Counted from the first letter of the stretch, positions 1 to 15,217 are shown. The stretch: DNA of 21,432 nucleotides from a bacterium (GCA_030622125.1 JAUXGM010000020.1:1-21432), one strand, 5' to 3'. Notes: a model not told the origin generated them from the sequence alone. Program-made: numbers and translations.

Positions 1-1
1 C

Positions 2-820
2 GCATTAAAAGGTGTTAATACACTCGATCTTTTCAATGATCTTAATTTGGATGACGACACACTTGCTGATACCGCTCCGCTATTTGATAGAGGTAAATGT
101 CCACTCTATTTTGATGTCTCATTGGTTGTGGATAATGATCTAACTCCGATCATTGAGGGATACTGTAATCTTCCGACGGATGACAGCGAGACAAATTTGA
201 ATATTGCTTTTACCTCAATACTTCTCGGTGCACTCCGAGTTTATGATATTGACGGCAATGGTAATTTTAATGAGACTCAAGAAATACTATACCTTGATAG
301 AGAGATGAATGTTCGTGGATTTGAGGGTCTTTCATCATCAGATGCGGGTTTTATAGCCGATAACATAAACAATAGAATCGACGATGTTGTTGATGATATC
401 AATAAATGCACAACTGCACTGAATATCGTTATAAAAAACCTTGATCTTGATAGTGGGGATGAGAATATGCTTGATGATATTAATAGTGTTGCAAATACCG
501 CTACAACACAGATAAGATACTATTATTATCAAGATGGAATCGATAATGACGGTGATTGGATAGATGTAAATCAAAACTTTCAACAGGATACAACTGTTTG
601 GACCGATTCAAACGATAATGGGACAATGGATGATACTACAGGAACACCCTGGACTTATGACAGAGTTAATCTTCTTCCCCTTCCCCTTGATGCCACATGG
701 TTCAATACCACCGGCGGTGAATGGCAAGGCGGTGATTTTGGTGTTGATGAAGAGATAATTGACGGAATTGATAACGATGGCGATGGAATGATCGATGAAG
801 ATTCGGGTGGTCATATATGA
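2..820 (+). CDS. Asp-rich protein with EF-hand-like calcium loops, 3' part only
   Basis: This reading frame is open from the first complete codon of the window, so it is the C-terminal end of a longer protein whose start lies upstream. A TTG at 47 is only an internal leucine codon. The visible 273 residues are very acidic and carry several Asp/Asn/Gly loops of the calcium-binding type: DIDGNGNF around codon 83, DNDGDW and DSNDNG in the second half, and DNDGDGMIDED just before the C-terminus. Such loops are known from EF-hand, dockerin and thrombospondin-3-like repeats of secreted proteins, so I infer an extracytoplasmic calcium-stabilised protein. No catalytic motif is recognised. The stop overlaps the next start (ATGA at 817-820), so it is translationally linked to the barrel/OmpA gene and probably works in the same envelope process. 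Confidence 0.85.
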   Translation, partial: ALKGVNTLDLFNDLNLDDDTLADTAPLFDRGKCPLYFDVSLVVDNDLTPIIEGYCNLPTDDSETNLNIAFTSILLGALRVYDIDGNGNFNETQEILYLDREMNVRGFEGLSSSDAGFIADNINNRIDDVVDDINKCTTALNIVIKNLDLDSGDENMLDDINSVANTATTQIRYYYYQDGIDNDGDWIDVNQNFQQDTTVWTDSNDNGTMDDTTGTPWTYDRVNLLPLPLDATWFNTTGGEWQGGDFGVDEEIIDGIDNDGDGMIDEDSGGHI

Positions 821-2673
821 AAAGAATAATAATATTTTTATTTTCGGTGATTGGAATTTTTGCCTTTTCAGAGACAAATATTGAAAACTTTGATATATTT
901 TCAAAAGCAATAGGAGATGCTTCCATCTCTTTCGGCACTTCCTTAAATTCATTTAACCTCAATCCTGCAAATGTAACGAACTTTGAAAGCGGAGCATTTA
1001 CTCTTTTTATCCCCTCTTTCGGTTTTAATAAGGAATCTTATGATCTCTACAAGTTTTATATGAATAATAAGGATCGTTTTGATTCCGACTCTTCTTTGGA
1101 GGATCTTGATTGGGATGAGATCGATGATATACTAAGTAAGGACCCGTTTTTGGCACTACAACTACCGATAAATTTTTATATCTTGACAAAACCGGATAAA
1201 TGGGGAATACAAACACTTTTCGGACTGAATGCTTACACAAGGATAAAAACGGATATCGATAAAGGAGTGATCCCTCCTGTTTCATCCTACATTTCTGCGG
1301 AAGCGATCGGTGATATCTATGTTCCTTTTTCAATATCAAAACAATTTAAAATTAAAAGTTACAAATTGAATGTTGGAACTACACTTAAATATATTCACAG
1401 GGAAAAGGTATTTGTTGATAAAAGTCTGACGCCTGCACTTGTAAACTATGTTCCCGTCCGATATTCCGGTGATGGATTCGGTATTGACCTTGGAGCGGTA
1501 TTTGAATACAACGACCAGATAAATGTCGGCGTATCCCTTTTAAATGCCGGAAAGGCAAGGTTTTGCTGGACCGCTGAAAAGTTTGATAAAGATGACACAA
1601 CACCGGTAACAATAGACACACGCCCAACCTACATTGATCCGATCCTGAATCTTGGATTTACTTTTTTCCCAAAAATAAAAGGTTTGCCCGGTTTTATCAA
1701 GAATAATTTTATATCGGCTTCTCTAAATGATATCTTAAAACCTCAGGACTATCTACTCAATCATTTAAAGATCGGACTTGGAACAAATATATATAAAGCA
1801 TTTAATATTTTCATCGGACTGAATGGGGGTTATCCGACAATTGGAACGGATATTGATATCTGGGTCTTTCATCTTTCTTATGCCTATTATACGGTAGAAC
1901 TTGGAAAATACCCGGGTCAGATCGCCGATAGCAGACATCTTTTTTCTATGTCATTTAGCGGAATGAAGAGGATAACACCGAGAGAATCAAGATGGAGAAA
2001 GATAAAAAGTAAAAGTGCAAAACCAAAAGAGAAAAAACAAGTAGCAAAGCCAACACAAATAGAAATAGACAAGAGTGTTAAAAAAGCACAATCGGAAGCG
2101 GATAAAAAAAGGCAGGAAGAACTGAGGAAAGAAGCGGAACTAAAAAAAATGCAAAAGCAAGCAGCAGAGGAATTACAAAAGGAAAATAAAAAAGAAACTG
2201 CTGCAAAAAAAATCGCTTATAAGGGAAAAAAGGTCAAAGAAGAGATTTTGGAAGAAGTGAAAATAGAGAAAAAACAAAGTGAAGAAATTCTTGAAGAGAT
2301 TAAAACATTGCCGCACAAAAAAACAGAAAAAGAGGTAAAGATATTACTGAATATTAAGTTTCCGCCGGGAAAAACCTATATTCCGGAAAACCAAAAAAGT
2401 GATCTTTACACGGTATTGGAAGGGGTTAAAAAGTCAAAAGGTCATATAATGATCAATTCATATACCGATTCTTCCGGTTCCGCTGCAATAAACCTCAAAC
2501 TATCCAAATTAAGGGCTGCGGAAGTAAAAAAGTTTTTCATTAAAAATGGAATAGATCCTTTAAGATTGATCGTGAAAGGATGGGGAGCTACAAATCCAAT
2601 TGCCGACAATTCAACAAGAGAAGGAAGAGCGAAAAACAGAAGAATTGAAATAGTGATAAAAGTGGAAGAATAA
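817..2673 (+). CDS. PorV/UPF0164-like outer-membrane barrel fused to OmpA domain
   Basis: The 618-residue protein has three parts. Residues 1-18 are a signal peptide (MKRIIIFLFSVIGIFAFS). Residues of about 20-380 look like an outer-membrane beta-barrel: alternating aromatic/Gly strands and an early GTSLNSFNLNPAN stretch resembling the NPA motif of the PorV/PorQ and UPF0164/TraF-like families. Residues of about 385-505 are a Lys/Glu/Ala-rich linker, likely helical, suited to crossing the periplasm. Residues of about 507-616 are a canonical OmpA_C peptidoglycan-binding domain, with TDSSG, LSKLRAAEV, KNGIDPLRL, GWGATNPIADN and GRAKNRRIEI. I infer an outer-membrane protein tethered to the cell wall. 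Start ATG overlaps the previous stop, and the phosphatase gene follows after 1 nt. The barrel assignment is by pattern; the OmpA domain is certain. Confidence 0.88.
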   Translation: MKRIIIFLFSVIGIFAFSETNIENFDIFSKAIGDASISFGTSLNSFNLNPANVTNFESGAFTLFIPSFGFNKESYDLYKFYMNNKDRFDSDSSLEDLDWDEIDDILSKDPFLALQLPINFYILTKPDKWGIQTLFGLNAYTRIKTDIDKGVIPPVSSYISAEAIGDIYVPFSISKQFKIKSYKLNVGTTLKYIHREKVFVDKSLTPALVNYVPVRYSGDGFGIDLGAVFEYNDQINVGVSLLNAGKARFCWTAEKFDKDDTTPVTIDTRPTYIDPILNLGFTFFPKIKGLPGFIKNNFISASLNDILKPQDYLLNHLKIGLGTNIYKAFNIFIGLNGGYPTIGTDIDIWVFHLSYAYYTVELGKYPGQIADSRHLFSMSFSGMKRITPRESRWRKIKSKSAKPKEKKQVAKPTQIEIDKSVKKAQSEADKKRQEELRKEAELKKMQKQAAEELQKENKKETAAKKIAYKGKKVKEEILEEVKIEKKQSEEILEEIKTLPHKKTEKEVKILLNIKFPPGKTYIPENQKSDLYTVLEGVKKSKGHIMINSYTDSSGSAAINLKLSKLRAAEVKKFFIKNGIDPLRLIVKGWGATNPIADNSTREGRAKNRRIEIVIKVEE

Positions 2674-2674
2674 A

Positions 2675-3418
2675 ATGGCATTTAAACTGGAATACGGTGT
2701 TGTAACAGATCGCGGTAAAAAACGGGAAATAAATGAAGATAGTTTTACCGTGATTTCAAAAGATCAGATATTTATTGTTGCAGATGGTATGGGTGGTCAT
2801 TATGGCGGTGAGATTGCGAGTAATCTTGCAATAGAAATTCTGAAAAACAAAATGAAGAAAAAAGAACTTTCTCTGGATGAAATGGCACCGGAAGAAAATA
2901 TCAAAAAATTGGATTCAATAATAAACCACACAAATGATGAAATAAGGAAAAAAGCTAAGGATTCCTCCGTATACAATGATATGGGTACAACGGTAATAGG
3001 CGGGATATTTTTTAAAAATAGTGCAATGTTATTTCACATAGGAGACAGTAGAATTTATCTTTTAAGAGAAGATGAACTTATTCAGGTTACTTATGATCAC
3101 AGTTGGGTAAATGAGCAGTTAAGATACAATCGATTATCTACAAAAGAAGCAAAGACCCACAAGTGGAAAAATGTAATAATGAGAGCACTTGGGGGGCAGG
3201 ATAATATTATTCCCGAATATTCACAAATAGATGTATCTTCGGGAGATAAATTTATTATATGTTCCGATGGATTATCCGATATGGTCTCTGATAGAGGAAT
3301 AGCAAGAATTGTTAAAAGGTATGACGATCCTCAAACAACTGCAAATGTCCTTTTACGGGATGCATTGAAAAAAGGCGGTTTAGATAATATTACAATTATT
3401 GTTATAAAGGTGGTGTAA
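2675..3418 (+). CDS. PP2C-family Ser/Thr protein phosphatase (Stp/PrpC type)
   Basis: A single-domain, 247-residue metal-dependent phosphatase of the bacterial PrpC/Stp1 size that removes phosphate from Ser/Thr residues, usually reversing Hanks-type kinases. All family motifs are visible: DRGKKREINED (D22), VADGMGGH (D37, G38), the MGTT turn, GDSRIY (D124), SDGLSD (D198) and LDNIT (D237); together they hold the Mn/Mg ions. There is no membrane segment, so it is cytosolic. It starts 1 nt after the barrel/OmpA stop and ends 1 nt before the kinase start, so phosphatase and kinase are made from the same message in the order usual for PP2C-kinase pairs. Its probable substrates are the two kinases of this cluster and their targets, which is inference. 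Confidence 0.96.
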   Translation: MAFKLEYGVVTDRGKKREINEDSFTVISKDQIFIVADGMGGHYGGEIASNLAIEILKNKMKKKELSLDEMAPEENIKKLDSIINHTNDEIRKKAKDSSVYNDMGTTVIGGIFFKNSAMLFHIGDSRIYLLREDELIQVTYDHSWVNEQLRYNRLSTKEAKTHKWKNVIMRALGGQDNIIPEYSQIDVSSGDKFIICSDGLSDMVSDRGIARIVKRYDDPQTTANVLLRDALKKGGLDNITIIVIKVV

Positions 3419-3419
3419 T

Positions 3420-5576
3420 ATGTTGCAAAGATGGGAAGATTTTATTATCTATAAGGACTACATATTTTTAAAAAAGCTTGCAATGGGCGGTATGGCAAAT
3501 GTTTATCTTGCAAGAAAAAAAGGCGCACACGGCTTTGAAAAACTTTATGCCATCAAAGAGTTGCATGATCACCTAAGAGAAAACAATACATTTTTCTCAA
3601 TGTTTTTGCAGGAAGCAAAACTATCATCAAAACTTGATCATCCGAATATTGTTAAGATATTTGATCTTTTAGGTGAAGAAAACCATTTTTTTATGGTAAT
3701 GGAGCATATTAAAGGAAAAAATTTAAAGAATATTTTACATACCGCTGCGACAAAAAAAATAGATATTTGTTCATTGGCATTAAAGGTAACATCTGAGATA
3801 TTAAGAGGATTGGATTTTGCTCATAATCTAAAAGATATAAACGGAAAAGCACTAAATATAATACATCGGGATATATCACCGCAAAATATAATGATCTCTT
3901 ATGATGGTTCCGTAAAGATCACGGATTTCGGCATTGCTAAGGCAGCGGATAATATTGAAGCAACGAGAACAGGTGTTTTGAAAGGAAAGGTTTCATATAT
4001 GTCTCCGGAGCAAGCATTTGGAAAAAAAATGGATTCCCGATCGGATCTTTATTCGGTAGGAATTATTCTCTATGAAATGTTGACATTAAAAAAATGTTTT
4101 CGCGGAAAAAATTCTGTCCTAACCCTTGATAATGTTAGAAACGGTGATTATATCTCAATAAAAAAACTTATTCCCGATATAGATCCGAAATTATCTCATA
4201 TCGTTAACAAGGCACTTGCTTATGCACCTGATAAAAGGTATCAAAGTGCGGCACATTTTCAAAAGGCAATTGACGACTATATTTTTGAAAGTAGAATTCC
4301 GATAAATAAACTTAACACTGCTAACTTTATGCACAAGAGCTTCGCCGATGATATAAAGAAAGAATTTGAAGAATTATCAAGGTTGAATAAAAAGATCAAA
4401 GAGATGCCGTATACTGCCGATACTAAACTTTCCGATAAAAAAAGAAAAAAGAAAAATACTAAAGCCCATAAAAAGAAAAAAATGTTGAAACCTATTTTAA
4501 ATATTTTTCTTCTTCTTTTTATCCCATTTTTACTATTTGATCTTTTATTTTATAATTTTTATAAGGATTTTATCAATAGTTTTCCCATATCAAAAAAAAT
4601 TGTAAAAGTATTGGAATATCGCCCTGATTTTTTACCGATTTTTAATTTGATACCTTATGAAAAATATAAACCGATTATTATAGAAAGTATATCCGAGCCG
4701 ATAAAATTTGTTTTCCAATCCACACCCGATAATGTGATAATAAAGGAAACGGTTGGTGATACACCAATGAATATGACGAAGGAAACAACAGGTATATATT
4801 CAATCGATATTATGTCATACAGAGGGTATAATTTTACTATATCAAAAAAAGGATACCGAGAAAAAATGATCCATACCAACCTTGCAAGAACTAATACGAT
4901 ACCTCATACAATTGAACTAAAAGAAAAATTAACCGAACTTACCTTGAATTATGCACCTAATGATGCAATGTTATATGTAAATGGAGAATTAAAGACTGAT
5001 TCATCTCCATATACATTGATCTACAACCCCGATAACGATACATCGGTTCATGAGATCATGGTTGCCAGGGTAGGCTTTGAGGCATTTAAAACAAGGATAA
5101 CATGTTCGGAAGAAACAAAGTCCTATTCCATAAAGCTTGAGCCGAAATTCGTAAATATAACATTCAAAGTAAAACCATGGGGAAAGGTTTATCATAACGG
5201 TAAATTACTTGGATTGTGCAATAAAGACTCTTCTTTTTTAAAGAAATTGCAAGCAGGAACTTATAAATTTAAGTTCGTTTATCCGGATGGCGATGTTACA
5301 AAAACACTTACCTACCATTTGACCGATTCCAAAGTTATTGAATACAGTTTTTTAAAAGCTTACGGATATGCTTTTATAACTTCTTATCCAAGTGGAGCGG
5401 ATATTTATGTGGACACCGCAAAGATGGCGGTAACACCGCAGGAAAGATTGCCATTAAAAGCAGGCTATCGCGTGATTGTGATATATAAAGATGGCTTTAA
5501 ACCTTATGAGACCAAGATTACAATAAAAGGTGGAGAAGAAATAAAAATATATGGTGAACTTGAGAAAATAGAGTAA
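3420..5576 (+). CDS. Transmembrane Ser/Thr kinase with periplasmic PEGA-like repeats
   Basis: A 718-residue Hanks-type kinase. The cytoplasmic catalytic domain spans about residues 12-290: Gly-rich AMGGMANVY, ATP-anchoring K46, helix-C E65, HRD at 149-151, DFG at 169-171, the SYMSPEQ activation-segment end, and SDLYSVGIILYEML. It therefore looks active. A Lys-rich juxtamembrane stretch precedes one membrane span at about residues 357-380. The rest should be periplasmic and is built of roughly four beta-rich units. The last one, about 647-718, matches PEGA domains well (SYPSGADIYVD, VTPQERLPLKAGYRV, DGFKPYE); the others are divergent. PEGA domains are thought to bind surface proteins or glycans, so I infer an envelope sensor. 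It sits between its phosphatase and the polysaccharide genes; its stop overlaps the next start by 1 nt (TAATG). Confidence 0.95.
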   Translation: MLQRWEDFIIYKDYIFLKKLAMGGMANVYLARKKGAHGFEKLYAIKELHDHLRENNTFFSMFLQEAKLSSKLDHPNIVKIFDLLGEENHFFMVMEHIKGKNLKNILHTAATKKIDICSLALKVTSEILRGLDFAHNLKDINGKALNIIHRDISPQNIMISYDGSVKITDFGIAKAADNIEATRTGVLKGKVSYMSPEQAFGKKMDSRSDLYSVGIILYEMLTLKKCFRGKNSVLTLDNVRNGDYISIKKLIPDIDPKLSHIVNKALAYAPDKRYQSAAHFQKAIDDYIFESRIPINKLNTANFMHKSFADDIKKEFEELSRLNKKIKEMPYTADTKLSDKKRKKKNTKAHKKKKMLKPILNIFLLLFIPFLLFDLLFYNFYKDFINSFPISKKIVKVLEYRPDFLPIFNLIPYEKYKPIIIESISEPIKFVFQSTPDNVIIKETVGDTPMNMTKETTGIYSIDIMSYRGYNFTISKKGYREKMIHTNLARTNTIPHTIELKEKLTELTLNYAPNDAMLYVNGELKTDSSPYTLIYNPDNDTSVHEIMVARVGFEAFKTRITCSEETKSYSIKLEPKFVNITFKVKPWGKVYHNGKLLGLCNKDSSFLKKLQAGTYKFKFVYPDGDVTKTLTYHLTDSKVIEYSFLKAYGYAFITSYPSGADIYVDTAKMAVTPQERLPLKAGYRVIVIYKDGFKPYETKITIKGGEEIKIYGELEKIE

Positions 5577-6979
5577 TGAAAAAAATAAAAAGAGAGAGAG
5601 CTTTTTTATTTTCCTTAAAGGTGATCGGTGATATTCTTATAGTATTTTTTTCTTATCAATTATCTTATTTGATCAGACACGGAGTATTTTTTTTCTACGG
5701 GAGAGAGCATTTTCTTGAATACATAGAACTCTTCGGATTTGTAGTTGTAATTACATTTTTTTCATTTCTAATCAGTAAGGTTTATAAACACCGCCGTTCT
5801 TTTTTTAGTTTGGATGAGTTGAAATATGTTTTCAATGCTTTATTTATTGCATTTCTTATTACTGTTTTTTTTGTATTCTTTAGTAAGGGTTATCAGTATT
5901 CCCGAGCAGTAATATTTCTATGGTTCACCTTTGATTTCATCTTTATTTCCTTTTTTCACTTTGTTTTCAGTAGATTTGAAACACATCTTCATTCTAAAGG
6001 ATTCGGCGTAAAAAACATTGCAATAATCGGTAAAACCGATACCGGTGTTGATATCCAAAGAAAATTAAAAAAATATCCCGCACATGGAATGAAATTCATT
6101 GGATTTATTACAAAAAAGAAAGACAACAAAAAAAATGTTTTAGGAAGGCTTGAAAATTTAACGGATATCATAAAAAAATATAACATAGGTGAAATAATTA
6201 TTGCTGATGACACTATCAATGATAATGAAAAAATGAAAATAATAAAAATTGCAATTAAATATCAAATTCATGTAATTATTGCATCATCAATTTTTGAGTT
6301 ATTATCCTCCGATATTTCTGTAACCGAGATCTATGGAATACCGACCCTTACGGTAAGTCCATCGCCGATAAGAGGATTAAATCTTGTCTTGAAACGATTG
6401 ATAGATATATCCATATCCTTTTTTGTTTTGCTTATTAGCTTACCTTTTTCATTATTTATTTCAATTGCTATCAAGCTTGATTCAAGGGGACCGGTTTTTT
6501 TTAAACAACTCAGGGTAACAAAAAAAGGCAGGATATTCAACTGCCTAAAATTCAGATCAATGGTCAAGAACGCAGAAAAGATAAAAGATTCTATCTCTCA
6601 TCTCAATGAACAAATTAAGGGACCTATTTTCAAGGCGAAGAACGATCCGAGAATTACACGAGTTGGTAAATTCTTGAGAAAATATTCAATAGATGAATTT
6701 CCACAATTTATAAATGTTTTTTTGGGACAGATGTCTATTGTAGGTCCCCGACCGCCGATCCCTGAAGAGGTGGAAGAATACAATTCAATTCATATAGAAA
6801 GATTAAAAGTTAAACAAGGAATTACCGGCTTATGGCAGGTTTCCGGAAGATCGGAATTAAGTTTTGAAGATATGGTTAAACTTGATATCTTCTATATTGA
6901 ACACTGGTCATTATGGATAGACATAAAGATAATATTAAAAACAATTCCCGCTATAATAACAACAAAAGGAGCATATTAA
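5576..6979 (+). CDS. WbaP/EpsE-type polyprenyl-phosphate sugar-1-phosphate transferase
   Basis: Initiating enzyme of capsule, exopolysaccharide or O-antigen synthesis: it moves a hexose-1-phosphate from a nucleotide sugar onto undecaprenyl phosphate at the inner membrane. The 467-residue protein has the full long-form layout. About four membrane spans lie in residues 1-135, a Rossmann-like CoA_binding_3 region follows (NIAIIGKTDTGVDIQ onward), and the catalytic monotopic transferase runs from about 272 to the end. The latter shows KRLIDIS, GPVFFKQLRV, the KFRSM motif, YSIDEFPQ with the Asp-Glu dyad D373/E374, SIVGPRPP, and KQGITGLWQVSGRS. Donor sugar cannot be read from sequence; glucose or galactose is usual. 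It follows the PEGA kinase directly, and the dehydrogenase starts 11 nt after its stop. Confidence 0.95.
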   Translation: MKKIKRERAFLFSLKVIGDILIVFFSYQLSYLIRHGVFFFYGREHFLEYIELFGFVVVITFFSFLISKVYKHRRSFFSLDELKYVFNALFIAFLITVFFVFFSKGYQYSRAVIFLWFTFDFIFISFFHFVFSRFETHLHSKGFGVKNIAIIGKTDTGVDIQRKLKKYPAHGMKFIGFITKKKDNKKNVLGRLENLTDIIKKYNIGEIIIADDTINDNEKMKIIKIAIKYQIHVIIASSIFELLSSDISVTEIYGIPTLTVSPSPIRGLNLVLKRLIDISISFFVLLISLPFSLFISIAIKLDSRGPVFFKQLRVTKKGRIFNCLKFRSMVKNAEKIKDSISHLNEQIKGPIFKAKNDPRITRVGKFLRKYSIDEFPQFINVFLGQMSIVGPRPPIPEEVEEYNSIHIERLKVKQGITGLWQVSGRSELSFEDMVKLDIFYIEHWSLWIDIKIILKTIPAIITTKGAY

Positions 6980-6990
6980 ATGGAGATTTT

Positions 6991-8279
6991 ATGAATATAA
7001 CTGTAATTGGAACAGGCTATGTTGGACTTGTAACTGCCGTTTGCTTTGCAGATTTAGGAAATAGAGTGATCGGTATTGATGTAGATATTGAAAAAATTAA
7101 AAAATTAAAAAATGGTGAATCGCCTATCTATGAGCCCGGACTTACGGAACTTCTTAAAAAAAATCTGAGAGAAGGAAGATTGACTTTTGCAACCAATTCG
7201 AAAGAAGCGATAAAGACCTCTGATATTATTTACATTGCTGTCGGAACTCCACAGGACGAAGATGGTTCAGCCGATCTAAGTTACCTTATTACTGCTGTTC
7301 GCTATTTTGCATCTGTAATAGATCATAAGGTTATTATTGTAAATAAAAGCACTGTTCCTGTTGGCACCGGAAATTATTTAAAAAAAATATTATTGAAAGA
7401 AAATGTTTCGGAGAATCTTTTTGCTGTTGTTTCCAATCCCGAATTCTTAAAGGAAGGGACAGCTGTTTCCGATTTTATGTATCCTGAAAGGGTTGTAATC
7501 GGCTCCGAAGACAGGGATGCAATTGAAAGTATCGCAAGGCTTTATGAACCCCTTACAAAGAATATAATAAAAACTGATATTTTAAGTGCTGAGATGATCA
7601 AGTATGCTTCAAATGGTTTTCTTGCAACAAAAATATCATTCATAAACGAGATAGCGAATATCTGTGACAGGGTTGGTGCAAATGTCCGAGAAGTTGCCTA
7701 TGGAATGGGATTGGATTCAAGGATTGGAGATAAATTTTTGAATGCCGGGATTGGATACGGCGGTTCTTGCTTTCCAAAGGATACATTGGCGCTTATTGAT
7801 ATTGGGAAAAAAGCGGGTTACGATTTTCAGATATTGGAAAGTGTTGTTCGGGTGAATGAAAATCAAAAAAGGCTTTTTTTTGAAAAAGTAAAAGCAAATT
7901 TTACCGAACTTAAGAATAAAAATATTGCAATATGGGGACTTGCCTTTAAAGATAATACCGACGATATCCGGGAATCCCCGGCACTTAATATCATTCCCTG
8001 GTTAGTTGAAGCGGGTGCAAATATTTACGCTTATGATCCAATCTCTATTGAAAATGCTAAAAGACTTTTACCCGAAGAAGTAAATTATATAAATGATGCT
8101 TATGATACATTGAAAGATAAGGATTGTCTTTTGATCTTAACGGATTGGAAAGAGTTCAAACAGGTTGATTTTAAAAAAATGAAAGAATATCTCAAAGCCC
8201 CAACTATTATAGATGGCAGGAACCTTTATAAAAAAGATGATTTAAAGAAGTTAGGATTTACATATATAGGTATGGGAAT

Positions 8280-8283
<4 letters not shown>
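6991..8283 (+). CDS. ugd: UDP-glucose 6-dehydrogenase
   Basis: Oxidises UDP-glucose twice with NAD to UDP-glucuronate in the cytosol, the first step toward UDP-xylose and uronic-acid glycans. The 430 residues begin with the nucleotide-binding fold ([12 protein letters not shown], ending in GIDVD), then [19 protein letters not shown], the central dimer helix [17 protein letters not shown], the catalytic loop [10 protein letters not shown] with C260, and the C-terminal [17 protein letters not shown]. Start ATG 6991 is chosen because GGAG lies 5 nt upstream and the GTGYVG fold starts at once. The frame stays open upstream to an ATG at 6913, but that would add 26 residues overlapping the transferase gene. 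The stop overlaps the next start as ATGA (8280-8283), so it is coupled to the decarboxylase that uses its product. Confidence 0.97.
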
Positions 8284-9208
<925 letters not shown>

Positions 9209-9212
<4 letters not shown>

Positions 9213-10081
9213 AATATCTTTATTTAAACATAATAATTTCACTTATTTTTACTTTGTTACTCCTCGTATCAAGAAATAAACTGCCGAGAAAAAAAGGAGA
9301 ACAAACACCATTTTTAGGAATTATTTTTATCGTTCCTATTGCAATTTCACTTTTTATTAAATTTGATCAAATATTTTTATTGATATCAATATTGGTAATT
9401 TTATTAGGAATTATCGATGATATCTATCATTTAAAACCATTTTATAAACTCCTTTTAGAGATCATCATTGGAATTTTATACTTTGGATTGCAAAAAAATT
9501 ATAATCCGATCCTTTTTTTGATCCTAATCTTTATATTAAATAGTTTTAACCTTGCAGATGGAATAGATGGATTGCTACTTTTTATTTGTATTTTATGGCT
9601 CGGTATATTATTTTATGTCAACAGAAATCCAATTCTATTATTATTTTTATTTACTTCTATAATAGGGCTGATAGTTAATTTCCCACCGGCTAAGATGTTT
9701 CTTGGTGATTGTGGTTCTCTTTTTTTAGGATTTCTATTTTTTTATTTGATTGAAAATTCCTTTCGATTTTCCGATCTTAATTTTATCGGAATAGCATTCT
9801 TATTATGTTCATACCCATTTATAGATACCCTGTATGCCGTTTTTCGCAGGTTGAAAGCAAGAAAAAATCCCTTTAAAGGAGATAAAAAGCATATACACCA
9901 TCTTTTGAAAAATAAACTGGGAAATCCGAAGACAATTTTTGTAATTTTTTTACTTAATTTGCTGAATAGTGTGATATTTATCACCTTATACGAAAAATTT
10001 TATTTGCAATTCTTATTAATTTGTAGTATAATATTATTTATATTGAATGGTGTAATTTATTATTATGAATCGAAAAATTAA
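9209..10081 (+). CDS. WecA/TagO-like undecaprenyl-phosphate HexNAc-1-P transferase, apparent AUA start
   Basis: Polytopic transferase (glycosyltransferase family 4, MraY/WecA superfamily) that loads an N-acetylhexosamine-1-phosphate onto undecaprenyl phosphate. Counting from ATA 9209 it has 290 residues and many membrane spans. Motifs: an early [21 protein letters not shown] (D70, D71), NLADGIDGL (N114, D117, D120), [11 protein letters not shown] (D167) and the WecA-type HIHH (228-231) in the cytoplasmic loop, which MraY lacks. The first conventional start, TTG 9254, would remove most of membrane helix 1. From 9209 the protein begins KYLYLNIII after a good ribosome-binding site, and the overlap with the uxs stop is ATAA, mirroring the ATGA overlaps used elsewhere in the cluster. 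So either AUA is the start or ATG was mutated or misread. The gene overlaps the next by 17 nt. Confidence 0.85.
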
Positions 10082-11984
10082 GGATTATGAAATTATTGAA
10101 AAGATTGCCTCAGGGGGAATGGCAGATGTTTATAAAGCAAAAAAGATAGGTATCCGGGGATTTACAAAAATATTTGCAATTAAAGTAATAAAGGAAAAGA
10201 TCAGTGCCGATCCTAAATTAAAAAGTATGTTCGTTCAGGAGGCGGAACTTTCATCAAATCTCATTAATCCAAATATTGTTCAGATATTTGAACTTGGTGA
10301 AGATAAAGACAGGCTTTTTATTGTAATGGAATATATTCATGGTAAAAATCTAAAAGAGGTAAACAAATTTATAGGTTTTCAAAATATTAAATGGGAAATG
10401 TCCGCATATATAATACTCAAGAGTGCCATTGCACTTTTTTATGCCCATTCATTAAAAGATAATTATGGGAATAAGATTGGGATCGTTCACAGAGATGTAT
10501 CACCACAAAATATTATGGTAACCTTTAACGGAGATGTTAAGCTGGCTGATTTCGGTATTGCAAAGGTTGAGAATAAGGGAGAAACGGATAAAAATATACT
10601 CGTCGGTAAATACCCATATATGTCTCCCGAACAAACAAGAGGTGATAACTTAGATTATCGGTCGGATATATTTTCCCTTGGAATAGTATTTTATCAATTA
10701 CTTACGGGAAAATTACCGTTCATCGGAACAAACGGCAGTGAAGTTATACGAAGTATCAGGAACCATATCCCCGAACCACCATACAAGATAAAAAAAACAA
10801 TTCCCGTTGAAGTATCCAACATAATTATGAAATGTCTTGAAAAAGAACCTGATTTCAGGTATAAAACCACTATGGAAGTTGCAAAAGCACTTGAAAAATT
10901 TGTTCCCAATGTAATTGCAATATCCGATGAATTGGGACGACTTCTTCTTGAAAAATATACTATGAATCTGAGTAACAATCTTTCAGAGAAGCAAATTGAT
11001 ACAAAACATCCAAGCTCTGATACTGAAATAACCGATACAATAACATCATTGTTGGGACTGCTTAGAGAAAACCCGAATAATGTTGAATATTTAGAGAAGA
11101 TCGGAGTTGCTTATGCATTTCAGGGAAATTATGAAAAAGCAATGGAATACTACACACGAGGGCTTGCTGAAAACGATAGTAATTTTATGATCCGATTTAG
11201 ATTGGCTCAATTATTTATTAGAGAAAAGGATAAATATGATTTTTCTCATCAGTATAATATTTTAAAAAAACTTGAACCTAAAAACCCTCTTTTAAATCTT
11301 TTGGAACTTCAACATCAAATTGCTTATAAAAAATGGGATGATGCAGAAAAAGATATAAAAAAACTTAAGAATGATTTTCAAGATAATGTTGATTTCCTTC
11401 TTCTTGAATCGGAATTTTTCTCTCATAAAAAGAAATACACAAAGGTTATAAATAATTACATAAAAATTGCCGAGATTGAACCCGAATACTATTTTTTTAA
11501 GGAAAAAGCAAGGAATCTTGTAGAAGATATGTATAGTTCTATTTTTGATGGAGGTAAAACTACTACGGCAAAGAAACAAACCAAAAAAGTAGAAAGCAAA
11601 ATTCATCGCAAAGCACTTGTTATTGATGACGATAAAAATATGCGAATATTTCTAAAAATTATACTTACCGATCTGGGGTTTTCGGTAGATGTTGCTAAAA
11701 ATGCATTTAATGTGGAAAAATTACTTGAACTTCATGATTACAACTTCATAGTATTAGATATTCTCATGCCCGGGCAGAACGGTTTCAACCTTTTAAAGGA
11801 ACTAAAGAAAAAAAATTTAATTTCGGAAAAGATGATCATATTTATGATATCGGGTGTCTATAAAACCACAAAATTTAAACTTATGGCACATGATTTAGGT
11901 GTAGTTGAATATATTGAGAAGCCGTTTGCCGCACCAAAATTTACCAAATTAGTAAGAAAATATTTAAATGTATCCGTTAATTGA
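10065..11984 (+). CDS. Soluble Ser/Thr kinase-TPR-response-regulator receiver fusion
   Basis: A 639-residue protein with three modules. Residues of about 7-275 are a Hanks-type kinase with all key residues: ASGGMADVY, K40, E59, HRD 142-144, DFG 162-164, PYMSPEQ. Residues of about 335-490 hold TPR-like helices; the clearest is YLEKIGVAYAFQGNYEKAME. Residues of about 514-636 are a CheY-like receiver with the acidic pair D521-D523, phospho-acceptor D565 in LDILMPG, the MISG switch residue and the conserved Lys in EKPF. No membrane span is seen, so it is cytosolic, unlike the PEGA kinase upstream. Receiver domains take phosphate from histidine kinases, so this protein may join two-component and Ser/Thr signalling. 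Its start lies inside the wecA-like gene and its end overlaps the recombinase gene by 17 nt. Confidence 0.95.
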   Translation: MNRKIKDYEIIEKIASGGMADVYKAKKIGIRGFTKIFAIKVIKEKISADPKLKSMFVQEAELSSNLINPNIVQIFELGEDKDRLFIVMEYIHGKNLKEVNKFIGFQNIKWEMSAYIILKSAIALFYAHSLKDNYGNKIGIVHRDVSPQNIMVTFNGDVKLADFGIAKVENKGETDKNILVGKYPYMSPEQTRGDNLDYRSDIFSLGIVFYQLLTGKLPFIGTNGSEVIRSIRNHIPEPPYKIKKTIPVEVSNIIMKCLEKEPDFRYKTTMEVAKALEKFVPNVIAISDELGRLLLEKYTMNLSNNLSEKQIDTKHPSSDTEITDTITSLLGLLRENPNNVEYLEKIGVAYAFQGNYEKAMEYYTRGLAENDSNFMIRFRLAQLFIREKDKYDFSHQYNILKKLEPKNPLLNLLELQHQIAYKKWDDAEKDIKKLKNDFQDNVDFLLLESEFFSHKKKYTKVINNYIKIAEIEPEYYFFKEKARNLVEDMYSSIFDGGKTTTAKKQTKKVESKIHRKALVIDDDKNMRIFLKIILTDLGFSVDVAKNAFNVEKLLELHDYNFIVLDILMPGQNGFNLLKELKKKNLISEKMIIFMISGVYKTTKFKLMAHDLGVVEYIEKPFAAPKFTKLVRKYLNVSVN

Positions 11985-12864
11985 TGAGTTTCAAAGATAT
12001 TTAAAGATTCAACGGAATTATTCCAGTAATACGGTAAGAGCGTATACAGCAGATCTTACAATGTTTATAGAATTTCTAAAAAAAAGAAATACTAAGATCG
12101 ATCTAAAAACCGTTACCCATTACCAGATCCGCTCCTATCTTTCCTATCTTGTAAAATCCGGTTTAGCAAAGACATCAATATTAAGAAAACTTTCAACGCT
12201 CAGGAGCTTTTACAATCATTTGATAAGGGAAGGCGCCACCACTTTTAATCCGGTGAATGCAATTATTTCACCTAAAAAACCAAGACATCTTCCGCAATTT
12301 TTTAATGTAGAGGAAATTACGGATATTATTGAAAATATTGAAGTAAAAGATCTTAAAACTGCAAGGAACAGAACTATTTTTGAACTTTTTTATTCAACGG
12401 GCTTTAGAATATCGGAGCTAACGAAACTTCAACATAGAGATATTGATTTTATTTCTGAAATTATCAGGGTATTTGGAAAAGGTTCCAAGGAAAGAATAGT
12501 TCCTTTTGGAAGTTTTGCAAAAAATGCGTTACAGAAATATTACGAATATAAAAAGGAAGCAGGTATTCCAACTGATGATAATAGTTTTGTCTTTGTAAAT
12601 TTAAGAGGAAATCCAATAACGGTAAGAGGTATTAGAATGATAGTTGATGATCATTTGATAAAAATGGCTAAAAAAAATGGAAAATCGGCACATACATTAA
12701 GGCACAGTTTCGCAACTCACTTAATGAATGGAGGAGCAGATATAAAGTTAGTTCAAGAATTGCTTGGACATGTCTCTCTTTCAACAACGCAAATATATAC
12801 ACACCTTTCAACCGCTCATTTAAAAGAGGTCTATAAAAAATCCCATCCAATGGAAAAGGAATGA
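11968..12864 (+). CDS. Tyrosine recombinase, XerC/XerD type
   Basis: Site-specific recombinase of the Xer type, which resolves chromosome dimers at dif with a partner. The 298-residue length is that of XerC/XerD. An N-terminal SAM-like core-binding domain (QRNYSSNTVRAYTADL) is followed by the catalytic domain with all six active residues at Xer spacing: R147 (TGFRISEL), K171 (GKGSKER), H242 and R245 (HTLRHSFATHL), H268 (LLGHVSL) and nucleophile Y277 (IYTHLS). The sequence does not let me choose XerC over XerD. It shows no sign of being a mobile integrase: no attachment site, phage gene or composition change is nearby, and it is embedded in the gene train, overlapping the kinase by 17 nt and the next gene by ATGA. 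Confidence 0.94.
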   Translation: MYPLIDEFQRYLKIQRNYSSNTVRAYTADLTMFIEFLKKRNTKIDLKTVTHYQIRSYLSYLVKSGLAKTSILRKLSTLRSFYNHLIREGATTFNPVNAIISPKKPRHLPQFFNVEEITDIIENIEVKDLKTARNRTIFELFYSTGFRISELTKLQHRDIDFISEIIRVFGKGSKERIVPFGSFAKNALQKYYEYKKEAGIPTDDNSFVFVNLRGNPITVRGIRMIVDDHLIKMAKKNGKSAHTLRHSFATHLMNGGADIKLVQELLGHVSLSTTQIYTHLSTAHLKEVYKKSHPMEKE

Positions 12865-13694
12865 AAAAAATATTTTTGACTGCACCATCATTTGCTCTGG
12901 ATAAAAAAAATACATTGGATCAGATCAAGATCTTAAGAAATCATTTTGATATAGTTTATCAAAATGATATTTTTGATAAATGGTATAAATTCGCAGGAAC
13001 AGAGGAAAGACGAATAGATGAATTAAACAATGCTATTAGATCGGATGCCGATATCATCTGGGCGATCAGGGGGGGTTATGGTGTCAGTCAGATCCTCAGT
13101 AAGATAGATTTTAGATCAGAGAAGAAAAAGGTTTTTATTGGTTTCAGTGATTTCAGTGCTATTGGTTCTATTGCAATTAAATTCGGTCATAAATTTATAT
13201 ATGGACCGATGTTATTTACATTTAATTATCAAAAGTCGGGGACAAAAACATTATTTAAACTACTTAACGGAGATGGAAAAACACGAGAATATAGATTACC
13301 ATATAAAAAAAATTTGAATGGATATGCTTCGGTTTTCTGTTTGAAATTACTTGTGAATCTTCTTGGCACTCCCTTTGAACCGAAATTTAAAAGGAACACA
13401 ATTCTTTTTCTTGAGGATGTTGGAGAACGAGCGTATGCGATAGATAGGGATCTGATGCAATTATACCATTCCTATTTGTTAAAAAATGTTAAAGCAATTT
13501 TTTTTAATTTTGTAAATGTCTATAGGGAGAATGATATTGACCTAAAAGAACATATCAAGAAGGTATTTTATGATAAGGATCTCTTTTGGGGATTGAAATT
13601 CGGTCATTCACAAAAATTCATTCCTATTATATACGGTGAAAGAGTGGAGATAAAAAATGAAAAGATTATTTTTTACGATAATTTTATTTATTGA
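12861..13694 (+). CDS. LD-carboxypeptidase, peptidase family S66 (LdcA-like)
   Basis: Serine peptidase that cleaves the L,D bond to the terminal D-Ala of tetrapeptide muropeptides, usually in cytoplasmic cell-wall recycling. At 277 residues it is slightly short for the family, and it has no signal peptide. Visible family features are the N-terminal TAPSFA, AGTEERRIDEL, AIRGGYG, and IGFSDFSA with nucleophile S96. Later come IYGP, FLEDVGERAYAIDRDLMQL with E185, and FGHSQKFIPIIYGERV with H249. These three residues fit the Ser-Glu-His triad of LdcA. Homologues of the MccF branch cleave microcin instead, but no antibiotic-related gene is nearby. It fits the cell-wall theme set by the OmpA domain at the other end of the cluster. 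The next gene starts 38 nt before its stop. Confidence 0.9.
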   Translation: MKKIFLTAPSFALDKKNTLDQIKILRNHFDIVYQNDIFDKWYKFAGTEERRIDELNNAIRSDADIIWAIRGGYGVSQILSKIDFRSEKKKVFIGFSDFSAIGSIAIKFGHKFIYGPMLFTFNYQKSGTKTLFKLLNGDGKTREYRLPYKKNLNGYASVFCLKLLVNLLGTPFEPKFKRNTILFLEDVGERAYAIDRDLMQLYHSYLLKNVKAIFFNFVNVYRENDIDLKEHIKKVFYDKDLFWGLKFGHSQKFIPIIYGERVEIKNEKIIFYDNFIY

Positions 13695-14931
13695 TCTATT
13701 GATATTTTCAGAGGTCTTTATTCCGATGGATATTACTCAAAATGATCATTTAAAAGCCTACGGTGCGGTCTATAATTTTCTCAGGAATGTTGGAGGCAAG
13801 ATTGAATGGGTATTGAATTATAAGGGTGGCAGTTTTATTGTTCCCGATTGTATCTTTATAAGAGAATATTGCAAGACGCGCAAGATTATATATAAACTTA
13901 TTGGTTCCGAAGAAATAGCAGCCATTAAGCAAACGGTAAGTGAGAACAATATGGAGATAGTATACCTTGAAAAAGCAGCTAAAATCGCAGTATTTACGGC
14001 ACTTACATTAGGAAAAGAAACAATAATGTCGGAAGAACCGTGGGACGATGCGGTAATTCTTGTATTAGAATATGCGGAGATCCCTTATGATAAGATATAT
14101 ATTGATGATATATTGAACGGGAAACTGAAGGATTATGAATGGATACATCTTCATCATGAGGATTTTACGGGACAATATGGGAAATTTTATAAATCCTTCA
14201 AAACAGCAAGCTGGTATATTGCACATAAGAGATGGCTTGAAATAAAAGCGAAAGAAAGAGGATTTAACGATGTCCCTACACTTTTAAAAAAGGTTGCGGT
14301 TAATATTGCCAAGTATGCCTCAAACGGTGGATTCTTATTTGCGATGTGTTCTGCAACCGACACAATAGACATTGCACTCTCTGCATTAAAAACAGATATT
14401 GTACCACCTGAATTTGACTATACACCGATAGATCCCGATTATGCTTCAAGGTTAAATTTTGCTGTTTCATTTGCTTTTAGTAATTTCAATTTGATAACAA
14501 ACCCTAATATATACGAGTTTTCTGATATTGATGTTTCAAATTACAATGTTCCGCCTGAATCCGGAAAGGAAGATTTTTTTCTCTTTGATTTTTCTGCAAA
14601 GCAGGACCCGATACCGACAATGCTTTGTCAGAACCATCAAAAATTAATACATGGGTTTATGGGACAGACATCAACATTTAATATGAGAACAATAAAGGAT
14701 TCCGTTGTTATAATGGGGTATCTGAAAGATATGAAACGGGCAAAATATTTATACGGCGGTTATGGTAAGGGTTTTTTTACATTCTATGGAGGGCACGATC
14801 CTGAGGATTATGCACACAGAATAGGTGATCCTCCAACCGATGTTTCTAAATACAAAAATTCTCCAGGTTACCGTTTGATATTGAATAATATCCTCTTCCC
14901 CGCAATGCGGAAGAAGAAGATGAAGACATGA
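13657..14931 (+). CDS. Secreted, possibly GATase-1-like protein of the type labelled 'asparagine synthetase B'
   Basis: A 424-residue protein with a signal peptide (MKRLFFTIILFIDLLIFS). Its opening FIPMDITQNDHLKAYG resembles, from memory, a Bacteroidota-type secreted family labelled 'asparagine synthetase B'. None of the domains of that enzyme is present: no N-terminal Cys nucleophile and no synthase PP-loop. Two segments look instead like a class I glutamine-amidotransferase or ThuA-like fold. One is GGFLFAMCSATD, with C231 at a nucleophile-elbow-like position. The other is GKGFFTFYGGHDPED near the C-terminus, with H380 and E383. I therefore infer a periplasmic hydrolase or binding protein of that fold; the substrate is unknown. 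Start ATG 13657 has GGAG 7 nt upstream, inside the end of the carboxypeptidase gene. It is the last gene of the + strand train, and no clear terminator follows. Confidence 0.72.
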   Translation: MKRLFFTIILFIDLLIFSEVFIPMDITQNDHLKAYGAVYNFLRNVGGKIEWVLNYKGGSFIVPDCIFIREYCKTRKIIYKLIGSEEIAAIKQTVSENNMEIVYLEKAAKIAVFTALTLGKETIMSEEPWDDAVILVLEYAEIPYDKIYIDDILNGKLKDYEWIHLHHEDFTGQYGKFYKSFKTASWYIAHKRWLEIKAKERGFNDVPTLLKKVAVNIAKYASNGGFLFAMCSATDTIDIALSALKTDIVPPEFDYTPIDPDYASRLNFAVSFAFSNFNLITNPNIYEFSDIDVSNYNVPPESGKEDFFLFDFSAKQDPIPTMLCQNHQKLIHGFMGQTSTFNMRTIKDSVVIMGYLKDMKRAKYLYGGYGKGFFTFYGGHDPEDYAHRIGDPPTDVSKYKNSPGYRLILNNILFPAMRKKKMKT

Positions 14932-15044: not shown

Positions 15045-15217
15045 AAACTCAGAAAACAAGCGGGACGCACCTAAACATCAGAGGTACTTCCCCCGATTAG
15101 TCGGTTCGTATTCGCTCACTCCGAACAATTTCGGAGTTCTTTAATTCATAAGGTAGGGGGACACAGTCTTGGGACACACGATGCAAGCAACGTATGTCCC
15201 GCTTGTTTTCTGAATTT
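15045..15217. mobile_element. Possible MITE-like element with 18-bp perfect terminal inverted repeats
   Basis: TCAGAAAACAAGCGGGAC at 15049-15066 is the exact reverse complement of GTCCCGCTTGTTTTCTGA at 15196-15213. Extending outward gives 21 of 22 matching bases (15045-15066 and 15196-15217). The enclosed segment of about 170 bp encodes nothing and contains one of the 54-bp direct repeats. I see no target-site duplication, so a decayed element or a long-range RNA stem is equally possible. Confidence 0.4.
15086..15139. repeat. 54-bp direct repeat, copy 1, containing a perfect 8-bp hairpin
   Basis: It starts ACTTCCCCCGATTAG and ends TTCGGAGTTC, and matches copy 2 at 15297-15350 in 52 of 54 bases. 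Inside it, ACTCCGAA (15118-15125) and TTCGGAGT (15130-15137) form a perfect stem around a 4-nt loop, and CCGA-TTAG-TCGG forms a smaller one. Confidence 0.9.

What the first reader, a model, noticed from the sequence alone, without database searches (positions are those of the whole stretch)
2675..11984. Polysaccharide genes bracketed by two Ser/Thr kinases and a PP2C phosphatase
Order seen: PP2C, membrane PEGA kinase, WbaP-type transferase, Ugd, Uxs, WecA-like transferase, then a soluble kinase-TPR-receiver protein, all touching or overlapping. In known capsule systems control is by tyrosine kinases (Wzc/CpsD); Hanks kinases are known to affect cell-wall enzymes, but a cotranscribed two-kinase, one-phosphatase frame around both lipid-linked priming enzymes and nucleotide-sugar enzymes is not a layout I know. 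Inference: phosphorylation tunes initiation of a xylose-containing surface glycan, with the PEGA domains sensing the envelope and the receiver bringing in a second signal.
Basis: partly seen in the sequence, partly recalled or inferred. Interest (0 to 1): 0.65.

Follow-up and report, generated by a model that had tools for sequence, protein, structure and literature searches.

The report
Kinase genes beside glycan-starting genes
In an uncultured bacterial phylum, enzymes that start a surface sugar chain sit in one conserved run of genes between two protein kinases and a phosphatase; the run is real, but it was joined from older separate units, and only one of the kinases has stayed with the sugar genes in every relative.

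Summary
The run is longer than described (gA-OmpA ... Xer-LD-carboxypeptidase-g12, ending at a terminator-like hairpin). Its order is identical in all five genomes of the family held. In the sister family it is two separate units: gcv-PP2C-PEGA kinase on one side, WbaP-Ugd-Uxs-WecA-kinase/TPR/receiver-Xer on the other, the latter behind a perfect sigma-70-type promoter. So the 'frame' arose by fusion in one family. The right-hand kinase also has its own near-consensus promoter-like site inside wecA in all seven genomes, which argues against simple cotranscription. The PP2C is the only one of its family in every genome, so it is probably a general phosphatase. The genome also carries Wza and a Wzc-type tyrosine kinase elsewhere. 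A Hanks kinase restraining a capsule-priming transferase is already known (S. aureus PknB-CapM), and the actinobacterial pstP locus joins one PP2C, two kinases and wall enzymes. Among 40 neighbourhoods of the same sugar genes in other phyla, two hold a Hanks kinase and none a PP2C, so the layout is unusual. Best reading: the kinase-TPR-receiver protein tunes glycan initiation. Its substrates are unproven. wecA appears to start at a conserved ATA codon.

The parts
1..820 (+). gA: conserved protein with D-rich repeats, cut by the contig start; homologues look like lipoproteins
   Evidence: ORF, orthologue before OmpA in 4 other genomes; no Pfam family
817..2673 (+). outer-membrane-type protein, barrel-like N-terminus and OmpA domain
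   Evidence: Pfam OmpA 72 bits; conserved in place in the family
2675..3418 (+). PP2C Ser/Thr phosphatase (Stp1/IreP type), the only PP2C_2 hit of the genome
   Evidence: NF033484 244 bits over cut-off 230; one PP2C_2 hit per genome; metal-site motifs intact
3420..5576 (+). membrane Hanks kinase with C-terminal PEGA domain; activation-loop Thr182 invariant
   Evidence: Pfam Pkinase 148 bits, PEGA 62 bits; alignment A2; model
5576..6979 (+). polyprenyl-phosphate hexose-1-phosphate transferase (WbaP/WcaJ superfamily)
   Evidence: TIGR03025 438 bits over 296; Salmonella WbaP structures E 1e-54
6991..8283 (+). Ugd, UDP-glucose 6-dehydrogenase type
   Evidence: TIGR03026 485 bits over 190; GGSCFPKD motif
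8280..9212 (+). Uxs, UDP-glucuronate decarboxylase (UDP-xylose synthase)
   Evidence: best solved relatives are UDP-glucuronate decarboxylase 1 (UXS1), E 1e-112
9195..9211 (+). Shine-Dalgarno AGGGAG and ATA start codon of the WecA-like gene, overlapping the Uxs stop (ATAA)
   Evidence: ATA at this place in all 5 family genomes; no ATG/GTG/TTG through TM1 in three of them, including the two near-identical ones
9209..10081 (+). divergent WecA/MraY-superfamily transferase, motifs [19 protein letters not shown] kept
   Evidence: Pfam PF00953 63.5 bits; motifs
10004..10032 (+). promoter-like site TTGCAA-17-TATAAT inside wecA, 32 nt before the second kinase
   Evidence: TATAAT and 17-nt spacer at the matching place in 7 of 7 genomes, 10-12 of 12
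10065..11984 (+). soluble Hanks kinase - TPR - receiver protein (KTR); receiver phospho-Asp565 kept, no invariant activation-loop Ser/Thr
   Evidence: Pfam, alignment A1, model
11968..12864 (+). XerC/D-type tyrosine recombinase, next to KTR in both families
   Evidence: TIGR02224 338 bits over 335
12861..13694 (+). LD-carboxypeptidase (S66)
   Evidence: Pfam S66 domains
13657..14931 (+). conserved exported protein of unknown family
   Evidence: no Pfam match; 66-68% identical in the family
15118..15137 (+). terminator-like hairpin after the last gene
   Evidence: 8-pair stem and T-rich tail; terminator counts in the region are at chance level

Best explanation
This is a conserved envelope gene run made by joining older units: (i) PP2C-PEGA kinase, once behind the glycine-cleavage genes; (ii) WbaP-Ugd-Uxs-WecA, which supplies UDP-GlcA and UDP-xylose and loads the first sugar on the lipid carrier; (iii) KTR-Xer, with its own promoter inside wecA. 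Most likely KTR is the regulator tied to glycan initiation: its receiver takes a two-component phosphoryl signal, this gates the kinase (which has no conserved activation-loop acceptor), and the kinase phosphorylates a priming or nucleotide-sugar enzyme. The PEGA kinase and the sole PP2C are general envelope signalling that joined the run later in one family. Shown: genes, motifs, order, unit boundaries, promoter-like sites. Inferred: transcription, substrates, signal, direction of effect.
For: Order identical in 5 of 5 family genomes. KTR stays with WecA-Uxs-Ugd and Xer in both sister-family genomes, and WbaP is placed with them in the one whose contig reaches it; PP2C-PEGA kinase does not stay. 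Perfect promoter-like site before WbaP in G005. KTR mean promoter score 11.0 of 12 against 6.2-8.7 for ten other genes. Invariant receiver Asp565 and Lys619; invariant T-loop Thr in the PEGA kinase but no invariant Ser/Thr between DFG and SPE in KTR. Sugar-gene neighbourhoods in other phyla: Hanks kinase in 2 of 40, PP2C in 0. Precedent: PknB phosphorylates the priming enzyme CapM and lowers capsule (PMC6441080).
Against: No phosphorylation data of any kind. KTR is as firmly linked to Xer as to WecA. Only seven genomes of the phylum are held and the sister-family contigs are short. No glycosyltransferase, flippase or polymerase lies in the run, so the glycan is unidentified. The sister-family KTR has HLD in place of HRD, so the kinases may be regulated differently.
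Confidence: 0.45

Rival explanations
1. Neighbourhood without a special link: a long run of housekeeping and envelope genes (gcv, kinase/phosphatase, sugar enzymes, Xer, carboxypeptidase) held together by shared transcription; both kinases act on targets elsewhere.
For: Functionally mixed neighbours: gcvT-H-PA-PB upstream in G001-G003, gcvPB in G004, Xer and HslV downstream in the sister family; the PP2C is the sole one per genome.
Against: Sugar genes and KTR stay together across two families at 26-64% protein identity; the linkage is rare elsewhere.
Confidence: 0.3
2. KTR serves Xer or the cell cycle: the promoter inside wecA drives KTR-Xer, and the kinase tunes chromosome-dimer resolution or division; the sugar genes are upstream bystanders.
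For: KTR-Xer adjacent in all seven genomes with a conserved promoter-like site just before KTR.
Against: Xer is followed by HslV in the sister family, and Xer/codV genes commonly sit in mixed operons (own knowledge); no known Hanks kinase control of Xer was found here.
Confidence: 0.15
3. One reading: both kinases and the PP2C form one dedicated circuit on glycan priming, with PEGA domains as envelope sensor and the receiver as second input.
For: Fixed order in the five family genomes; overlapping genes.
Against: Split in the sister family; separate promoter-like sites; the sole PP2C must serve about four kinases in G000.
Confidence: 0.1

Closest known systems
Staphylococcus aureus PknB acting on CapM (PMC6441080)
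   Same: Hanks kinase controlling a capsule-priming phosphoglycosyl transferase; a tyrosine autokinase system coexists
   Different: PASTA kinase of a Gram-positive; here a PEGA kinase and a kinase-TPR-receiver encoded beside the transferase; substrate not shown
Actinobacterial fhaA-fhaB-pstP-rodA-pbpA-pknA-pknB locus (PMC6554272)
   Same: one PP2C, two Ser/Thr kinases and wall-synthesis enzymes in one conserved locus; PP2C often the sole phosphatase; kinases with their own start sites
   Different: peptidoglycan enzymes rather than lipid-linked priming and nucleotide-sugar enzymes; PASTA and FHA proteins there, PEGA and receiver here
Rhizobium leguminosarum Pss-I cluster with pssZ (PMC6071215)
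   Same: Ser/Thr phosphatase gene inside an exopolysaccharide cluster and needed for it
   Different: PssZ is assigned to the PPP/MPP group by database match; no adjacent kinases described in the passages read
E. coli Wzc/Etk acting on Ugd (PMC2516531)
   Same: phosphorylation of Ugd tunes polysaccharide output
   Different: tyrosine kinases; this genome's own Wzc-type kinase lies on another contig

Membership tests
Stp1/IreP PP2C phosphatase | NF033484 curated score and metal-binding motifs | tested here: met
   244.1 bits over 230; DGMGGH, SDG, DN motifs
PASTA kinase (PknB/Stk1) | NF033483 score with PASTA repeats | tested here: not met
   279.7 and 253.9 bits below 450; PEGA or TPR-receiver instead
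Hanks Ser/Thr kinase | Pkinase fold score, catalytic Lys, Asp of HRD, DFG | tested here: met
   about 148 bits each over 31.7; motifs; Foldseek to PknB for the PEGA kinase
Polyprenyl glycosylphosphotransferase (TIGR03025) | curated score | tested here: met
   438 bits over 296
WbaP or WcaJ in the strict sense | TIGR03022 / TIGR03023 curated scores | tested here: not met
   340 under 403; 379.5 under 410.75; the sugar is therefore unassigned
UDP-xylose synthase (UXS) | closest solved relatives and SDR catalytic YxxxK | tested here: met
   UXS1 structures E 1e-112; YDEAK
WecA in the strict sense | TIGR02380 curated score | tested here: not met
   70 bits under 326; member of PF00953 only
Wzc/CpsD-controlled capsule locus | tyrosine autokinase beside the genes | tested here: not met
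   none in the window; Wzc-type (TIGR01007 145 bits over 108) on contig C49
Single operon of seven genes | one transcript | not testable with these tools
   overlaps favour it; promoter-like sites before KTR (7 genomes) and WbaP (G005; 227 nt upstream in G001/G004) speak for several units
Kinase control of the sugar enzymes | phosphorylation of at least one enzyme | not testable with these tools
   needs kinase assays or phosphoproteomics

The most novel reading that the evidence does not exclude
KTR is a new kind of switch: a Hanks kinase gated by a two-component receiver instead of T-loop phosphorylation, encoded from a promoter inside the priming-enzyme gene and acting on that enzyme, whose own synthesis is held low by a conserved AUA start codon.
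Probability: 0.15. Interest if true: 0.7.

Novelty: new variant of a known kind. Interest (0 to 1): 0.42.

Why it matters
It points to one specific, testable regulator-substrate set (KTR against four sugar enzymes) in an uncultured phylum, and would show that Hanks control of glycan initiation, known from S. aureus, also exists with a receiver-linked kinase in a bacterium with an OmpA-type outer-membrane protein and a Wza-Wzc system. It also shows how a striking gene frame can be a fusion of unrelated units, which only a sister lineage reveals.

Tried and rejected
Local duplication of the two kinases: they fall in one clade with two deltaproteobacterial (labelled Myxococcota) kinases (100/98), but not clearly as sisters, and the sister-family KTR is placed unsurely. 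Frameshift fusion Uxs-WecA instead of the ATA start: no slippery site seen by eye in any of the five genomes; ATA with a Shine-Dalgarno fits better. Glycan genes near kinases of other phyla: none with Ugd, Uxs or WecA, one WbaP near a TPR-only hit. Contig C120 as the missing left neighbour of the window: no overlap found. CapM Thr134 equivalent: the CapM sequence was not held. Fission in f2 rather than fusion in f1 as the direction of change cannot be excluded without an outgroup; fusion is preferred because each f2 unit has neighbours of its own.

Full report
What is there. The window is contig C89 of a 2.08-Mb draft genome; its phylum has seven genomes held, five in one family (f1: G000-G004) and two in a sister family (f2: G005, G006). 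The closest named records are unclassified 'bacterium' MAGs. All seven genes of the finding are present at the stated places, on one strand, with the stated families. Genes abut within 1-2 nt or overlap by 1-17 nt (17 at WecA/KTR and KTR/Xer), except 11 nt between WbaP and Ugd. Ugd starts at 6991, not 6913. The run goes on to the left (gA, an OmpA-domain protein) and to the right (Xer, LD-carboxypeptidase, an unknown exported protein), ending at a hairpin at 15118-15137.

Intact enzymes. Kinase Lys, HRD and DFG, PP2C metal motifs, receiver Asp and Lys, the PGT motifs, the Ugd Cys motif, the Uxs YxxxK and the MraY/WecA-superfamily motifs are all present. The PEGA kinase keeps an activation-loop Thr182 in all members. 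KTR has no invariant Ser or Thr between DFG and SPE, so activation by autophosphorylation there is less likely; this is inference. Models (PEGA kinase pLDDT 64, KTR pLDDT 72) show a beta-rich C-terminus in the former and a TPR solenoid plus a complete receiver fold in the latter.

Conservation. In the four other f1 genomes the order gA-OmpA-PP2C-PEGA kinase-WbaP-Ugd-Uxs-WecA-KTR-Xer-LDcp-g12 is identical. In G001, G002 and G003 gcvT-gcvH-gcvPA-gcvPB lies directly upstream of gA, and gcvPB does so in G004. In f2 the run is split: G006 has gcvPA-gcvPB-PP2C-PEGA kinase, G005 has gcvT-H-PA-PB-PP2C at a contig end and PEGA kinase-zinc ribbon-LepA on another contig (LepA and HslV named from their sequence by eye). 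The sugar genes form their own unit with KTR and Xer, followed by HslV; in G005 WbaP is preceded by a perfect TTGACA-17-TATAAT, while G006's contig begins inside Ugd. So the two-kinase frame is a join found in f1 only; that f2 split it instead cannot be excluded without an outgroup. In the window's own genome the gcv link is absent: gcvT-gcvH lie at 19.7-21.2 kb on the other strand and gcvPA-gcvPB on C120.

A promoter inside wecA. For eleven genes of the run the best sigma-70-type match in the 90 nt upstream was scored in every genome. KTR averages 11.0 of 12, the other ten 6.2 to 8.7. All seven KTR genes have an exact TATAAT and an exact 17-nt spacer, 29-42 nt before the start, although the wecA protein at that place is poorly conserved. 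The window's own copy is the weakest (10 of 12, shuffle fraction 0.03 with 70 nt and 0.08 with 90 nt). The seven are related genomes, so this is not seven independent cases. It suggests that KTR-Xer is expressed on its own as well as by read-through.

Is the linkage unusual? Forty neighbourhoods (583 kb) of the best WbaP and Uxs relatives in other phyla hold two Hanks kinases and no PP2C; the kinase profile recovered 48 known kinase loci as a positive control, some of which had supplied its training sequences. Conversely, 43 loci of related kinases in other phyla have no Ugd, Uxs or WecA near them and one WbaP. These samples were chosen by similarity, not at random.

What else the genome has. 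One PP2C_2 hit in each of the seven genomes against about four Hanks kinases in G000. Three Bac_transf genes in G000; one lies in a cluster with several glycosyltransferase-like ORFs (by eye). Wza and a Wzc-type protein with a tyrosine-rich tail and a tyrosine-autokinase domain over the curated cut-off are on C49. So tyrosine-kinase control exists here too, elsewhere.

Literature. S. aureus PknB phosphorylates the priming enzyme CapM, lowers lipid I formation by up to 30% in vitro, and its loss raises capsule five-fold (PMC6441080). The pstP locus of Actinobacteria joins a PP2C, wall enzymes and PknA/PknB, with separate start sites for the kinases (PMC6554272). pssZ in the Rhizobium Pss-I cluster is needed for EPS (PMC6071215). 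Ugd is activated by tyrosine phosphorylation in E. coli (PMC2516531).

The ATA start. In all five f1 genomes the wecA frame opens only 3-7 codons before an ATA that follows a Shine-Dalgarno sequence and, in four, overlaps the Uxs stop as ATAA. In the window the first ATG/GTG/TTG is a TTG inside TM1; in G001, G003 and G004 there is none before TM1 ends; G002 has a TTG five codons after the ATA. f2 has TTG. Conserved AUA starts are known in S. aureus, with non-canonical starts giving about 10-30% of AUG output (PMC13009471). This would keep the enzyme scarce.

Judgement. The regulator worth testing is KTR.

Noticed in passing
window 9195-9211; L009, L010, L011, L012 at the Uxs/WecA junction: wecA appears to start at a conserved ATA codon (SD spaced 5-9 nt) in five genomes of the family, TTG in the sister family.
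   Followed up: partly
window 10004-10032 and the matching place in L009-L014: Near-consensus promoter-like site inside wecA just before the kinase-TPR-receiver gene in all seven genomes of the phylum.
   Followed up: yes
L200:1779-6165, L199:2163-6475, L198:3612-7889, L197:484-5483, L016: Glycine-cleavage genes gcvT-H-PA-PB sit directly upstream of the PP2C (with gA-OmpA between in f1) in both families; the link is broken in the window genome.
   Followed up: yes
L091:9015-12765 (G000 contig C49): Wza-like export protein, a 319-aa membrane protein and a Wzc-type tyrosine kinase with a Tyr-rich tail, next to a full-length WecA-family gene.
   Followed up: partly
L013, L014 KTR: Sister-family KTR has HLD in place of HRD in the catalytic loop, a change of kinase class.
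   Followed up: no
L012:7125-7153, L009:11955-11983: Perfect TTGACA-17-TATAAT inside the PEGA kinase gene, 227 nt before WbaP, in genus g2.
   Followed up: partly
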